Below the pieces are notes generated by a model. The model had not been told where the DNA came from. It did not search any database and saw nothing but the letters and a program-made list of their open reading frames with translations. A program made the position numbers and the translations under genes. 64,000 nt of DNA from Lusitaniella coriacea LEGE 07157 (GTDB lineage: Bacteria > Cyanobacteriota > Cyanobacteriia > Cyanobacteriales > Spirulinaceae), in the NCBI RefSeq assembly GCF_015207425.1, contig NZ_JADEWZ010000024.1, positions 1 to 64,000 of the forward strand. Reading direction: 5' to 3'. The first letter of the stretch is position 1; the number at the start of each line of letters is the position of its first letter. Below are positions 2,082 to 63,521 of the stretch, one piece after another.

Positions 2082-3434
2082 ATGGCTCAAAACTTCAGCA
2101 ATTTAGCCGCCAGTCATTCCCTTCCCCCCCAAAACATCGAAGCGGAAGAGTCGATTTTGGGGGGGATTCTCCTCGACCCCCAAGCGATGGGACGGGTTGC
2201 AGATTTGATGGTGGCAGACGCATTTTATATCAGCGCCCACCAAGAGATTTATCAAGCGGCACAGGACTTGCACCGCCAGGGAAAACCCACGGATTTAATG
2301 ACCGTGACCAGTTGGTTGCGCGATCGCGCCCTCCTCGACAAAATAGGAGGAACCGGGAAAATCGCCCAGTTGGTAGACCGCACCATTTCCGCCGTTAACA
2401 TCGACCGCTACGCCGCGTTGGTGATGGACAAATACCTGCGCCGCCAACTGATTAACGCAGGTCACGAAATCGTCGAATTGGGCTACGATACCGCCACAGA
2501 ATTGGATTCAGTTCTCGACCAAGCGGAACAAAAAGTCTTTGGACTCACCCAAAAGCGCCCCCAACAGGGGTTAGTCCCCATTGCAGAAACCCTCAGCCAT
2601 ACCGTTGACAAAATTGAAAGCTTGCAAGACGAGTCGGCACTCCCCGGATTAAATTGTGATTTTTACGACCTTGACGCGATGACTGGGGGATTTCAGCGTT
2701 CTGACCTAATTGTGATTGCTGGCAGACCGTCAATGGGCAAGACCGCGATGGGAATCTGTATTGCGGCGAATATCGCTCAAATTCACCATTTTCCCATCGC
2801 GGTATTTAGCCTGGAAATGTCCAAGGAGCAACTCGCGCAGCGCCTCCTTGCCAGCGAAGCAGAGATTGAAAGCAATCGCCTGCGTTCTGGACGATTGAGT
2901 CAAGATGAATGGACAAAGTTGAGTACCGCAGTTGGAACCCTGTCCGAAATGCCCATTTTCATTGACGATAGCGCCACCTTAAGCGTCATGGAAATGCGCT
3001 CCCAAGTGCGCCGCTTGCAGGCAGAACATGGAGGAAAGTTGGGTTTAGTTTTATTGGACTATTTGCAATTAATGGAAGGCGGAGGGGATAATCGCGTTCA
3101 GGAATTAGCAAAAATCACGCGATCGCTCAAGGGATTAGCCCGTGAAGTTGATGTCCCCATTATTGCCCTATCTCAGTTGAGTCGAGGTGTAGAAGCGCGT
3201 AATAATAAACGACCGATGATGTCGGATTTGCGCGAATCCGGATCGATCGAGCAAGATGCGGATTTAGTGATCATGCTTTATCGGGACGAATACTACAATC
3301 CCGATTCTCCCGATCGCAATATTGCCGAGGCGATTATTACCAAACATCGTAATGGTCCAACAGGAATCGTTAAACTCCAGTTTAAACCGGAATTCACGAA
3401 ATTCAGAAATTTAGCGCAGCCGCAAAATTATTAG
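2082..3434 (+). CDS. dnaB: replicative DNA helicase DnaB
   Basis: Hexameric 5'-3' helicase of the replication fork. The 450 aa product has the N-terminal DnaG-interacting domain (residues ~15-120, with PPQNIEAEESILGG) and a RecA-type ATPase core. Walker A is GRPSMGKTA near residue 213 and the Walker B region is LVLLDYLQLM; the DLRESGSIEQDAD motif follows. The length is that of an uninterrupted DnaB: the Walker A and other usual intein insertion sites are intact, although many cyanobacterial dnaB genes carry inteins. The upstream gene is rplI. Confidence 0.97.
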   Translation: MAQNFSNLAASHSLPPQNIEAEESILGGILLDPQAMGRVADLMVADAFYISAHQEIYQAAQDLHRQGKPTDLMTVTSWLRDRALLDKIGGTGKIAQLVDRTISAVNIDRYAALVMDKYLRRQLINAGHEIVELGYDTATELDSVLDQAEQKVFGLTQKRPQQGLVPIAETLSHTVDKIESLQDESALPGLNCDFYDLDAMTGGFQRSDLIVIAGRPSMGKTAMGICIAANIAQIHHFPIAVFSLEMSKEQLAQRLLASEAEIESNRLRSGRLSQDEWTKLSTAVGTLSEMPIFIDDSATLSVMEMRSQVRRLQAEHGGKLGLVLLDYLQLMEGGGDNRVQELAKITRSLKGLAREVDVPIIALSQLSRGVEARNNKRPMMSDLRESGSIEQDADLVIMLYRDEYYNPDSPDRNIAEAIITKHRNGPTGIVKLQFKPEFTKFRNLAQPQNY

Positions 3435-59708: not shown

Positions 59709-60413
59709 TCACTGTACGCCAACAGCGCGTCCGCCAGTACCGAAGATAATCGCGCGATCGCGCGGCATGGGTTCCCAACCCACATCAAATCCCTCACTCC
59801 ACGCCAGTTTGCGTGCTTCTCGAAAGACCTTAAAACTGTCGGGACGCACGATAAAAGCGAGATAATCATTTTTGGGGTTTAGTTTTTTGAGAACTTGTTG
59901 AAAATCCGAATTGGTTTGTTGTAAGTCCTGGGGTGATTCTCCTGGTTGGTCTTCAACAGGGAGAAAGGCTAAACTTAATCCCTCACCATACAGTTTCACT
60001 TCGTAGTATTTGGTTGTGGCGCGATAATTTTGTAATTGTGCGTTTCGTTCTAGATAGCATCGGTCGTATTCTTCACGTTGTTGGCGATAGTATTCGTATA
60101 AAACCGAATCGGGGTCGCGGGAAAAGGAGGGTTCGCCACAGAAAGGTAAACTATTAATAAATTGAGCGACTTGGTTAGTTGCAGAAACGGTGTCGAGATA
60201 GGCGGCGCGATCTCCTTTGACTTCAAAAAAATGGGCGGTTTTATTACTTGTAGAAAGAAGTGGCGTGCGAATAATATTTCCTGCTTGCGCCGTAACGAGG
60301 GTAACAAACAAGCTAATAAACATCAGAACGCCAACGGTGTTGGTAAGAATGTCTAAAAACGAGTCGAGGTTTTGGGTGGGTGCGACGGATTTTCGCTGTC
60401 TTCTTCGTCTCAT
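59709..60413 (-). CDS. ExbD/MotB-like small membrane subunit, with Asp
   Basis: A basic cytosolic start (MRRRRQRKSVAP) is followed by one membrane helix beginning LDSFLDILTNTVGVLMFISL. D21 is at the position of the proton-carrying Asp of ExbD/MotB. The soluble remainder has coiled segments and ends with a module AFIVRPDSFKVFREARKLAW and EGFDVGWEP. The same module is in the upstream gene. Length 234 aa; no OmpA/peptidoglycan-binding domain is seen. It overlaps the upstream gene by 4 bases (ATGA), so the two are coupled. Confidence 0.82.
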   Translation of the reverse strand: MRRRRQRKSVAPTQNLDSFLDILTNTVGVLMFISLFVTLVTAQAGNIIRTPLLSTSNKTAHFFEVKGDRAAYLDTVSATNQVAQFINSLPFCGEPSFSRDPDSVLYEYYRQQREEYDRCYLERNAQLQNYRATTKYYEVKLYGEGLSLAFLPVEDQPGESPQDLQQTNSDFQQVLKKLNPKNDYLAFIVRPDSFKVFREARKLAWSEGFDVGWEPMPRDRAIIFGTGGRAVGVQ

Positions 60414-60871
60414 TGTGCCTCTTCTATTTTAAGCTGCCAATCGCTATCAAAGGGTTCGTAACCCAGGTCAATTCCTTCTGATTCGATTAATTCCCGAACT
60501 TGCTCAAAGACTTGAAATCCATCGGGTCTAACGGCAACAATAAAATATTCGCGATCGCGGTTATTTTTCATTTCCGTTAATAATCGACCAAAAGCAGAAC
60601 TTTTTTGACTAATTTGTTGTTCTTTGACTACGGTTTTGCTGGGATAGATAACGACGCTATCAGCACGACATTCAATATAACGCGGTTGCTTAATACGGTT
60701 CTCTCCCTGTTCGCTTTTGACGACGATTTTCACATCCTTCTGCTCGTTTAGCATTTGACTGGTAATGACAATAATTAATAAAATCAATGTCCCAATCGTG
60801 CAGGCGAGAATGGAAAGGAAAGGGAAGAGTTCGGTTTGAATGGGTTGTTTAGAAATTGAACGCCGACGCAT
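60410..60871 (-). CDS. ExbD/MotB-like small membrane subunit, Asp replaced by Ser
   Basis: Same layout as the downstream gene: basic start, one membrane helix (ELFPFLSILACTIGTLILLI) and a short soluble part ending VAVRPDGFQVFEQVRELIES, then EGIDLGYEP. At the position aligned with D21 of the downstream protein there is S20. Such a subunit would be unable to carry a proton at that site. Length 153 aa. It lies 183 bases downstream of the channel-type gene. Confidence 0.82.
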   Translation of the reverse strand: MRRRSISKQPIQTELFPFLSILACTIGTLILLIIVITSQMLNEQKDVKIVVKSEQGENRIKQPRYIECRADSVVIYPSKTVVKEQQISQKSSAFGRLLTEMKNNRDREYFIVAVRPDGFQVFEQVRELIESEGIDLGYEPFDSDWQLKIEEAQ

Positions 60872-61054
60872 AGTTTAGTGACTAATCAACAGTTTAGGAG
60901 AGATAACAATTTTCACTTTGGTAAGGTACAAAAATTGAATTTTAAGGGAATAGAGAACAGATAAATGTACTTCATAAGTCCGAAAAATGCCATAGTTAAA
61001 AGCCCAATATTTCGTAGGGTGGGCAGCGCCCACAAGCATTAAAGTAATGCTGAA

Positions 61055-62434
61055 TCAATCATCCCCTTCCATAAAAGTAATGCGTCTTGGTTTTCCAAGT
61101 TTTTGTAAAACGGGTTTAAGTTGAGTTAAATTTCCTTGAAGTTCACTTAAAACGGTTCCTAATTGATTGGTTTCTTTCAGGGAATGTAAACTATATTCCA
61201 AACCTTGTTGAAGTCGAGCGACTTCTAGGATTTGATTCGTGCATTCTTCTAAGGCATCCACTCGATTTGTCAAGGCTTGCGTCGCTTGTTCGAGTTGTTG
61301 CATAATTTGTTTTGATTGACGCGCCAACTGATTGGCAACGGCGGTTTGATTTGAAGAGATTTCCGTTAATTTTTCTTGGGTTTCTTTAACTAAATCTCTA
61401 GTTGTTTGCTGCTGACCTTCAAAGGTTGAAATGAAATCCTGACGGTCTTTTAAGGCAATTTGATTGATTTTTCCCGCTTGTTGAATCAGCTTTTCCGTCA
61501 TGTCTCGAACTTGACCGATTTCAGTAACAAAACTTTGAGCAATTTCTGAAGCGGCTTGTTGAGCGTAGTCTCGTGCGGGTTGAACCAAGGCTTCGGGTTC
61601 GGGCAAACTGTCTTGAATGGCTTGGGTGACCGATCGCGCGATCGCGCCCTCGTCCAATTCCTTAGCGCGTCCTTTTAATTTTGGTAGAACTTGCTCGTTA
61701 ATATAAACATCAATTCCCAAAAGAAATTTCGATTCAAACCGTTCGACTAAAACCACTGGAATCATCACCAAAACACTGAGTAATAGCGCCAAAAGTGTGG
61801 TGTCAAATGCCACAGCTAAACCACTTGTAACCGTGCCAATTCCTTCTTTGATTTGATCGATTTCTGCCGCTTGTTCGAGAAACCCAGAAAAGCCATTGAC
61901 TGCTCGACTAATCCCCACAACTGTCCCGATAAATCCCAGTAAAGGAATTGCCCAAACTAAAATACGTGGAATGGAATAAGAAGACTCGGAAGCACTCAGA
62001 TAAAAAGAGGAATCATCAAGGGCTAATTCTGTTGCGGTTTTCCCACTTCCCGATTCAATATAGGCTTTAATGATGCGACTACAACGAATTGCTAGCAAGT
62101 ATCCCGAATGAGATAAGGCGTATTCGAGTTTAGCGACTTGGCGAGAATCGGGATCTTCGAGAGAGATATTCGGCGGAATCCAAAGTTGTCTTAAGGCTTT
62201 AAATTCCCTTTGTATTTTAATGAATTTTAGGAGCGCGATCGCACTTGCAGTTCCTGCTAAAAAAATAACAAGAGGTTGAGTCAATCCTCTCTCATAAAGT
62301 AAAACGCCGATAAAAGTATCTTTTACCGGAAATAGCAAAATATAAATACCCACAAGAACGACACAACCAATCCCTATTGCCAATGGCATAGGAACATCTA
62401 ATTCCTGTCGTGCGTAACTGGAACTTCTCGACAT
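61055..62434 (-). CDS. MotA/TolQ/ExbB-like proton-channel protein with coiled-coil tail
   Basis: About four membrane helices: residues ~16-36, ~46-68, ~160-185 (ILVWAIPLLGFIGTVVGISR) and ~207-235 (LAVAFDTTLLALLLSVLVMI). The last two carry the ExbB/TolQ/MotA signatures, including P-x-LGFIGTVxG and GLAVAFDTTLLALL. From ~240 to 450 the protein is a long helical coiled coil (QQTTRDLVKETQEKLTEISS, then QLARQSKQIMQQLEQATQAL). Length of 459 aa is larger than ExbB. It is the first gene of a unit with two ExbD-like genes. The role of the complex is not known. Confidence 0.85.
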   Translation of the reverse strand: MSRSSSYARQELDVPMPLAIGIGCVVLVGIYILLFPVKDTFIGVLLYERGLTQPLVIFLAGTASAIALLKFIKIQREFKALRQLWIPPNISLEDPDSRQVAKLEYALSHSGYLLAIRCSRIIKAYIESGSGKTATELALDDSSFYLSASESSYSIPRILVWAIPLLGFIGTVVGISRAVNGFSGFLEQAAEIDQIKEGIGTVTSGLAVAFDTTLLALLLSVLVMIPVVLVERFESKFLLGIDVYINEQVLPKLKGRAKELDEGAIARSVTQAIQDSLPEPEALVQPARDYAQQAASEIAQSFVTEIGQVRDMTEKLIQQAGKINQIALKDRQDFISTFEGQQQTTRDLVKETQEKLTEISSNQTAVANQLARQSKQIMQQLEQATQALTNRVDALEECTNQILEVARLQQGLEYSLHSLKETNQLGTVLSELQGNLTQLKPVLQKLGKPRRITFMEGDD

Positions 62435-62818: not shown

Positions 62819-63493
62819 CTAGTGGGGTTGATAGCTGGTCATCACTCTTCCCGCACCCCATAATTGTTGGTAGTAAGCGCGACTCACCTCATTACTGTCT
62901 TCCGAAAGCTGGTCAATGCCAATTCCATCGCGTCCAATATCTTTGCCAGAACTGTGGATATATTGACCCTCTCCCAAATAAAGCGCTACATGACTCACCC
63001 TCGCGGTTTGCTGGAAAAAAATCAAATCGCCGGGACGCAATTCTTCGATTTCAATGGATTGGGTAAATGCTGCTTGCTGATAGGAATCTCTGGGTAACCA
63101 AATTCCCGAAGCCGCAAACGCCGCCTGCATCAGTCCCGAACAATCGTAATTTGGCGCGACAGTTCCACCCCACAGGTAATAATTGGGGCATTGCATGGCG
63201 GCGCGAGTAAAGGCAATGATTTGGGGAATTTTCTGCTCGATTTCTGCGCGGGAATATTTTTGGGGTTGATACGCCGTTGTTGCAGGTTGCAATGCGCTGA
63301 CACTCGAACGAGGCAACCATCCCGAATAACCATCTTCGCACAAACAAACTTCCAGGGCAGAATCGCGCACAGAAAGAAGGCATAGCTGTCGTCCCGTCGC
63401 TGCTTGGGTTACTAAATTTTCGCAGTTGGGAGATTCGTAGAGATTGAGGTTAGTTTGAAGAGAATATTCTTCGGTGGGTGATGGAGTTAGCAT
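62819..63493 (-). CDS. NlpC/P60 (C40) peptidase with N-terminal SH3-like domain
   Basis: Cell-wall endopeptidase, probably cleaving gamma-D-Glu to diamino acid bonds in peptidoglycan stem peptides. The SH3b-like domain is residues ~10-70. The catalytic domain has C118 in NYDCSGL, H168 in SHVALYLG and H180 in YIHSSG. I take ATG 63493 (MLTPSPTEEY); a GTG at 63511 would add six residues. No signal peptide is visible, as in the related cyanobacterial enzymes. The last base triplets overlap the repeat end at 62821. Confidence 0.92.
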   Translation of the reverse strand: MLTPSPTEEYSLQTNLNLYESPNCENLVTQAATGRQLCLLSVRDSALEVCLCEDGYSGWLPRSSVSALQPATTAYQPQKYSRAEIEQKIPQIIAFTRAAMQCPNYYLWGGTVAPNYDCSGLMQAAFAASGIWLPRDSYQQAAFTQSIEIEELRPGDLIFFQQTARVSHVALYLGEGQYIHSSGKDIGRDGIGIDQLSEDSNEVSRAYYQQLWGAGRVMTSYQPH

Positions 63494-63521
63494 GATGCTT
63501 GAAAGACGCACAGGTTGACAC

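What the first reader, a model, noticed from the sequence alone, without database searches (positions are those of the whole stretch)
59709..62434. Motor-like trio: one ExbB/MotA-type channel with two ExbD-like subunits, one lacking the proton Asp
The sequence shows a channel-type protein with a long coiled-coil tail, then two single-helix proteins of matching layout overlapping by ATGA. Aligned at the helix start, one has D21 in FLDIL and the other S20 in FLSIL. Both share a C-terminal module with RPD-F-VF and a G-D-G-EP end. In ExbD and MotB the helix Asp carries the proton (established), so a mixed dimer would couple with a single Asp (inference). No TonB, OmpA or Tol partner is nearby. This resembles, but is not, the ZorAB arrangement of the Zorya defence system.
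Basis: partly seen in the sequence, partly recalled or inferred. Interest (0 to 1): 0.68.

Follow-up and report, generated by a model that had tools for sequence, protein, structure and literature searches.

The report
Proton motor with one dead partner
A cyanobacterial three-gene set encodes what looks like a proton-driven membrane motor whose two matching axle proteins have fixed, unequal roles: one keeps the acid that carries the proton and the other has lost it, so how such motors step could be tested directly.

Summary
Gene A (61055-62434, -) encodes a MotA/TolQ/ExbB-type channel with a long helical tail. Two homologous single-helix proteins follow: B1 (60410-60871, -) with Ser20 where ExbD has its proton Asp, and B2 (59709-60413, -) with Asp21. 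The split is conserved: in searches that do not select for Ser, 30 of 32 B1 copies have Ser, one Asn, one Ala, none Asp; B2 has Asp in 31 of 32. The exception is the genome whose B1 has also lost its motif. A, B1 and B2 occur in the same 22 of 386 cyanobacterial genomes, even where the genes are scattered (in four genomes they lie at three separate places). Unexpectedly, a second, independent cyanobacterial family does the same: ExbB-ExbD(Asp)-ExbD'(Asn), in 11 of 12 neighbouring ExbD pairs seen. Best reading: a 5:2-type ion motor with an obligate B1/B2 heterodimer axle carrying one ion site instead of two. Heterodimerisation and coupling are inferred, not shown. It fails the Zorya tests made. 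Defence genes are not clearly enriched nearby in a partial comparison, although some Nostocales and both plasmid copies sit beside CRISPR or other defence-type genes. Cellular role unknown. Phyla other than cyanobacteria could not be searched properly.

The parts
61055..62434 (-). Gene A: MotA/TolQ/ExbB-type channel subunit, 459 aa; conserved core residues about 145-250, long helical (coiled-coil-like) presumably cytoplasmic tail about 260-445, conserved C-terminal PRR...E end
61802..61804 (-). A Asp211, invariant, next to polar-ring Thr212/Thr213 (FDTT); the aligned residue is not acidic in the genome's four ExbB proteins compared (Val, Thr, Leu, Ile) and is Leu in a solved ZorA chain
   Evidence: D, T, T in 100 of 100 aligned records, not independent genomes
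60410..60871 (-). Gene B1: ExbD/TolR-like subunit without the helix Asp (LFPFLS), 153 aa; predicted TolR-like periplasmic domain
60812..60814 (-). B1 Ser20, at the place of the ExbD/MotB proton Asp
59709..60413 (-). Gene B2: ExbD-like subunit that keeps the helix Asp (NLDSFLD), 234 aa; larger periplasmic domain with Cys92 and Cys119, shared C-terminal RPD..F..GWEP module
60351..60353 (-). B2 Asp21, the presumed ion-carrying residue

Best explanation
A, B1 and B2 form one proton- (or sodium-) driven inner-membrane motor of the 5:2 class. Five A subunits make the ring, and one B1 helix plus one B2 helix form an obligate heterodimeric axle in its pore. Only B2 carries the ion-binding Asp. B1 supplies the second helix with a neutral residue (Ser, rarely Asn or Ala), so the two-Asp exchange proposed for TolR cannot happen and the motor has one ion site per axle. 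The expected outcome is fewer ions per turn (about 5 rather than 10, 72-degree rather than 36-degree steps) or gating by the neutral strand. The two different periplasmic domains (TolR-like in B1; larger, with a likely disulfide, in B2) would give a directional, non-symmetric output to a still unknown envelope partner, and A's conserved tail end suggests a cytoplasmic partner too. Shown: homology, conservation of the Asp/non-Asp split, strict co-occurrence of all three genes. Inferred: stoichiometry, heterodimerisation, single-site coupling, steps per turn, output.
For: Same genome set for all three genes: A 22 of 386, B1 22 of 386, B2 23 of 386 with the extra one a 53-residue remnant holding a stop; the tool describes the sample as drawn evenly from the phylum. 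30 of 30 B1 genomes searched hold B2, including genomes where B2 lies elsewhere (G052, G160, G184, G225, G125) and four where A, B1 and B2 lie at three places (G134, G217, G282, G315). Split conserved: 30 Ser, 1 Asn, 1 Ala among the 32 B1 copies; Asp in 31 of 32 B2 (read). The lowest-scoring pair (G219) has Asn in B1 and Asp in B2. In G125, B1 and B2 have both lost the motif, as if coupling had been given up in both at once. Independent recurrence: in PF02472-type ExbD pairs one member has Asn in 11 of 12 neighbouring pairs (relatives were sought with an Asn-type query), and the 18 Asn/Thr sequences fall in one 19-leaf clade (support 0.963) with the site masked. B1 and B2 are homologous to each other, and B1's model has TolR 5by4 as best solved-structure match (E 4.2e-3, prob 0.99).
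Against: No complex model or interaction data. Linked genes are lost together anyway; the unlinked cases amount to only about three lineages. The TolR match is above E 0.001 with modest TM-scores (0.36/0.48); the B2 model found no sensible match. B1/B2 do not match PF02472, and profile comparison with canonical ExbD is weak for B1 and null for B2. A's invariant Asp211 could supply the charge missing from B1. One neighbouring ExbD pair (G004) keeps Asp in both, so a neutral second subunit is not compulsory in that family.
Confidence: 0.6

Rival explanations
1. Two kinds of homodimer share the A ring: A5:B2(2) is the working motor, and A5:B1(2) is an idle or regulatory form that blocks or titrates A.
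For: AglQ and AglS of Myxococcus are likewise two MotB-like partners of one channel, and it is not known whether they form homo- or heterodimers (PMC9389320, passages seen). B1 and B2 are separately encoded and sometimes unlinked.
Against: In the 386 genomes B1 was never found without B2, nor B2 without B1 except as one remnant. The motif was lost in both together in G125. The shared helix and C-terminal module fit a common dimer interface.
Confidence: 0.2
2. B1 is not in the pore at all but an accessory helix on the outside of the ring, like the TonB or TolA helix; B2 forms the usual two-Asp homodimer.
For: TonB and TolA bind the side of the ring through one helix (PMC12204202 section 8, read). 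B1 lacks the Asp.
Against: B1 keeps the pore-helix pattern aligned residue by residue with B2 (FLSxLxxTxG / FLDxLxxTxG) and a TolR-like domain. No His lies in the helix of the 15 aligned B1 sequences, as an SHLS-type motif would need (motif).
Confidence: 0.1
3. A Zorya-like anti-phage motor: the ring senses infection and the A tail signals to effectors.
For: A's closest defence profiles are ZorA (E 4.5e-8); A has a long tail as ZorA has. In Anabaena cylindrica plasmid pANACY.03 the trio directly follows a type III-B CRISPR operon with a viperin gene nearby; in Microcystis plasmid p1 it follows a methylase/nucleotidyltransferase/SLATT/helicase set. Three other Nostocales loci share a gene set of that kind upstream. 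Patchy distribution (22 of 386). More PADLOC families were hit by 125 trio neighbours (69) than by 125 ordinary ExbD neighbours (45).
Against: NCBIfam ZorA score 23.5 against a cut-off of 100; no ZorB or OmpA-like match in B1/B2. In the lists shown (25 of 69 and 25 of 45 families) the clearest difference is CRISPR type III genes (Csx1/Csm6, Cmr4-6), each hit by one or two proteins, presumably of L048; otherwise much the same generic families appear on both sides (PD-T4-6 kinases, mad3, mad6, MkoA). Scattered but retained genes in Thermosynechococcus-like genomes do not look like a mobile cassette.
Confidence: 0.1
4. Ser20 is an active substitute, for instance a sodium ligand, or A's ring of Asp211 carries the charge, so the axle still has two working sites.
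For: Ser20 is nearly invariant, more than a merely tolerated residue would need to be. A Asp211 is in 100 of 100 aligned records and not acidic at that place in the ExbB and ZorA compared.
Against: Asn or Ala replaces Ser in divergent members, and Asn or Thr is used in the ExbD' family: what is common is the absence of acid, not the presence of Ser.
Confidence: 0.1

Closest known systems
ExbB-ExbD / TolQ-TolR (PF01618 / PF02472)
   Same: Channel core with PLLGxxGTVxG and TT motifs; single-helix partner with a PxIDV-like Asp; TolR as best fold match for B1.
   Different: Two non-identical partners, one without Asp; long tail on A; extra Asp211; no TonB or TolA gene recognised nearby; B1/B2 outside PF02472.
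AglRQS gliding motor of Myxococcus
   Same: One MotA-like and two MotB-like proteins.
   Different: AglQ and AglS are both described as predicted to hold the conserved Asp (PMC9389320, passage seen); homo- versus heterodimer there is open.
Heterologous tolR-like pairs and TPH-vWA pairs (Mol Biol Evol 2025, PMC12204202, section 8 read)
   Same: One tolQ-like gene with two different partner genes.
   Different: TPH-vWA pairs carry a vWA domain and an Asp in each monomer. For the tolR-like pairs in the PVC group the section does not say whether one lacks Asp; I could not search those phyla.
ZorAB of Zorya defence
   Same: Ring subunit with long tail; weak ZorA profile similarity.
   Different: ZorB has a PG-binding domain and a critical Asp (PMC11890865, passages); no ZorB match here and no Zorya effector recognised nearby.

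Membership tests
MotA/TolQ/ExbB (PF01618) for A | Pfam profile above curated cut-off | tested here: met
   27.5 bits, cut-off 22.9; 28.9 bits in the genome search
ExbD/TolR (PF02472) for B1 and B2 | Pfam profile above curated cut-off | tested here: not met
   No PF02472 match at E up to 1 for either
ExbD/TolR (PF02472) for B1 and B2 | Asp in the pore helix | tested here: inconclusive
   Met by B2 (68 of 69 distinct), not met by B1 (0 of 74 readable of 76)
ExbD/TolR (PF02472) for B1 and B2 | TolR/ExbD-type periplasmic fold | tested here: inconclusive
   B1 best match TolR 5by4, E 4.2e-3, prob 0.99, low TM; B2 none
Zorya ZorAB | ZorA profile above curated cut-off | tested here: not met
   NF033915 23.5 vs 100 bits
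Zorya ZorAB | ZorB partner with PG-binding domain | tested here: not met
   No ZorB or OmpA-like profile for B1/B2
Zorya ZorAB | ZorC/D or ZorE effectors adjacent | tested here: inconclusive
   Window neighbours GH57 and NlpC/P60 were profiled; others only read by eye. None of the 25 families shown (of 69 hit) for 125 trio neighbours is a Zorya effector
AglRQS-type two-partner motor | Both partners keep the Asp | tested here: not met
   B1 lacks it; the AglQ/S statement is from PMC9389320
5:2 rotary motor class | Five ring and two axle subunits | not testable with these tools
   No multimer prediction available

The most novel reading that the evidence does not exclude
Single-site 5:1:1 ion motors are a recurrent class that arose at least twice in cyanobacteria (A/B1/B2 and ExbB/ExbD/ExbD'). 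An obligate axle heterodimer uses one ion-carrying helix and one permanently neutral helix, so the two-Asp exchange is not needed for rotation, and the motor gains a lower gear or a built-in direction.
Probability: 0.4. Interest if true: 0.8.

Novelty: new variant of a known kind. Interest (0 to 1): 0.62.

Why it matters
One published model for TolQR has the two Asp residues on the axle exchanging protonation with each 36-degree step (passage of PMC12905483 seen). A natural motor kept for long evolutionary times with one Asp and one neutral strand would show whether both sites are needed, and gives a ready-made single-site motor to measure ions per turn, direction and force. It also gives a genetic handle on the open question, stated for AglQ/AglS in PMC9389320, whether two different axle subunits pair with each other.

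Tried and rejected
Defence system: set aside as the general reading after comparing PADLOC hits (E up to 1e-10) in 125 of the 372 dereplicated trio neighbours with 125 of 165 dereplicated ExbD neighbours. The trio sample is the first part of the list (window to L050, 139 proteins, from which I left out one over 900 aa, the eight of L040 and five others, long or at an edge), not a random sample. The control sample is the first 125 in list order, from 15 of 19 control loci; a twentieth, L231, was dropped because no ExbD frame was found at the given place. 69 families were hit on the trio side and 45 on the control side, only 25 of each being shown, so the comparison is weak. Kept as a rival because of plasmid and Nostocales contexts.

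Search for the family outside cyanobacteria: the named-genome scan returned 54 relatives out of 120 pattern matches, 52 in records with cyanobacterial names. A first scan with B1 alone found no relative. One of the two patterns contains the Ser, so this set is not used for the Ser frequency. Plasmids gave two records, both cyanobacterial; viral contigs none. I recall LFPFLS-like proteins in Planctomycetes, but this comes from no call.

Sequence search for solved relatives: none useful; a short stretch of A hit a ZorA chain only at E 4.8, used for residue comparison only. B2 fold search: no sensible match.

Gene neighbourhood as a clue to function: no neighbour family is conserved across the 63 loci compared. 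A cluster that I read by eye as histidine-kinase-like (no profile call) lies directly upstream of A, same strand, in ten loci (mostly Crocosphaera/Cyanothece-like), and a CRISPR-type gene set in three Nostocales loci.

Literature: ten full-text searches (one search found no paper) turned up no description of an Asp-less ExbD paired with an Asp-bearing one. Most hits were seen as listings only; PMC12204202 section 8 was read, and passages of PMC12204202, PMC9389320, PMC12505986, PMC11890865, PMC8597729 and PMC12905483 were seen.
Full report
What is there. Three genes on the minus strand, in the order A (61055-62434), B1 (60410-60871), B2 (59709-60413), with B1 and B2 overlapping by ATGA. A passes the Pfam MotA/TolQ/ExbB cut-off and shares the ring-lining motifs with the genome's own ExbB proteins by profile comparison (E 2.6e-5, 74.7%). 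It differs from them by a tail of about 200 residues and by an invariant Asp211 directly before Thr212-Thr213 (100 of 100 aligned records, which include repeats of the same genome). The aligned residue is Val, Thr, Leu or Ile in the four ExbB proteins compared and Leu in a solved ZorA chain. B1 and B2 are clear homologues of each other (E 4.5e-16). The alignment puts B1 Ser20 on B2 Asp21, and the weak match of B1 to canonical ExbD puts the same Ser on ExbD's Asp (E 0.019, probability 2.4%, so support only in register).

Conservation of the split. The first 15 copies all have Ser in B1 and Asp in B2. Taking the two searches that do not select for Ser, 32 B1 copies in 31 genomes were found: 30 Ser, one Asn (G219), one Ala (G125; by alignment). 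One of the 30, in G212, lies in a gene interrupted by an in-frame stop, with only the tail part of A left beside it. Their B2 partners have Asp in 31 of 32; the exception is G125. Over all 76 distinct B1 frames, including those from the scan that partly selects for Ser, there are 72 Ser, 1 Asn, 1 Ala, and two frames that do not span the place; the 69 distinct B2 show 68 Asp, 1 Ala. Serine is spelled with all four TCN codons.

The three genes go together. In the same sample of 386 cyanobacterial genomes, A is in 22, B1 in 22 and B2 in 23, the sets being identical except for a 53-residue B2 remnant with a stop. All 30 other B1-bearing genomes found hold B2, as does the window's own. In 58 of 75 loci the three are in a row on one strand; in 7 more A and B1 are together and B2 is not beside them in the stretch held, in 2 B1 and B2 are together without A, in 1 the contig ends, and in 7 B1 stands without either beside it (four of these stretches are too short to show A) (L047 and L103 are the same copy, so 57 of 74 distinct). 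In G134, G217, G282 and G315 the three genes lie at three places and are all kept; I call these genomes Thermosynechococcus-like because their B1 closely resembles that of three named Thermosynechococcus loci. This argues for a shared function rather than for mere linkage, with the caveat that it represents about three separate lineages of unlinking.

G125 is instructive: it belongs to the same genus as G019, which has the intact set, but its B1 and B2 have both lost the helix motif while A keeps D-T-T. It looks like a set in which ion coupling was given up in both partners at once.

An independent second case. Checking ordinary ExbD proteins as a control, 37 of 39 distinct sequences had Asp, and the two others had Asn. 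Following these showed ExbB-ExbD-ExbD' operons in many cyanobacteria. Of 12 neighbouring ExbD pairs seen (one per genome), 11 have Asp in one and Asn in the other, and one (G004) has Asp in both. Relatives were found with the Asn form as query, so this is not an unbiased frequency; over all 81 distinct ExbD in that set there are 63 Asp, 17 Asn and 1 Thr. In several genomes the Asn form was seen without a neighbouring ExbD in the stretch held (L261-L264, L279, L292), the window's own genome among them. With the site masked, the 18 Asn or Thr sequences form one clade of 19 leaves (support 0.963, midpoint rooting): most simply a single old loss, kept since, with one Asp member. Since B1/B2 match each other well but PF02472 not at all, the two losses look independent.

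How it most likely works. Shown: homology to 5:2 motors, the conserved Asp/non-Asp split, strict co-occurrence. Inferred: B1 and B2 form the axle as a heterodimer in an A pentamer, with a single ion site. In one published TolQR model the two Asp residues exchange protonation at each 36-degree step (PMC12905483, passage); a single-Asp axle cannot do this and would be expected to step once per ring subunit, or to use the neutral strand as a gate. The periplasmic parts differ: B1 has a TolR-like fold by its best match (model pLDDT 79.7; TolR 5by4, E 4.2e-3); B2 is larger, with Cys92 and Cys119 both present in 65 of 69 sequences and both missing in the other 4, those of the Thermosynechococcus-like genomes, as expected of a disulfide. 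No output partner was found.

What it is not. It is not a Zorya system by the tests made. Defence-type genes do lie next to the trio in three Nostocales loci and both plasmids found. A partial sample of neighbours hit more PADLOC families than neighbours of ordinary ExbD did (69 against 45), but in the part of the lists shown the difference is mainly one CRISPR locus. AglRQS and the heterologous tolR-like pairs are the nearest precedents, from PMC9389320 and PMC12204202; where the text seen speaks of the Asp, both partners have it.

Verdict. It is a new variant of a known kind.

Noticed in passing
L260 (ExbB 2373-3071 -, ExbD 1941-2363 -, ExbD' 1507-1932 -); also L275, L277, L278, L281, L284, L286, L289, L293-L295; own genome L261:3587-4042: Widespread ExbB-ExbD(Asp)-ExbD'(Asn) sets: a second family in which one ExbD lacks the proton Asp, with a single-clade origin.
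   Followed up: yes
window 61802-61804: Invariant Asp211 in the A helix next to the Thr ring, not acidic in the ExbB or ZorA compared at that place; role unknown.
   Followed up: partly
L115 and L192 (genome G125): B1 and B2 have both lost their helix motif while A keeps its own; the genes are on different contigs.
   Followed up: partly
L136, L137; L048, L060, L063: Trio directly after a type III-B CRISPR operon in Anabaena cylindrica pANACY.03 (a similar gene set upstream in three other Nostocales), and after a methylase/nucleotidyltransferase/SLATT/helicase set on Microcystis plasmid p1.
   Followed up: partly
window 61070-61100 (end of A): The last residues of A's tail (PRR...E) are conserved although the tail before them is variable; possible docking site for a cytoplasmic partner.
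   Followed up: no
L193-L196: B2 of the Thermosynechococcus-like genomes lacks both Cys92 and Cys119, which are otherwise kept together.
   Followed up: partly
   Followed up: partly
window 62819-63511 (-): NlpC/P60 hydrolase with an SH3 domain upstream of A on the same strand; it was not seen as a conserved neighbour in the other loci.
   Followed up: partly
L102 (G212), L199 (G100): Decaying copies: an in-frame stop in B1 with a remnant of A, and a B2 remnant alone.
   Followed up: partly
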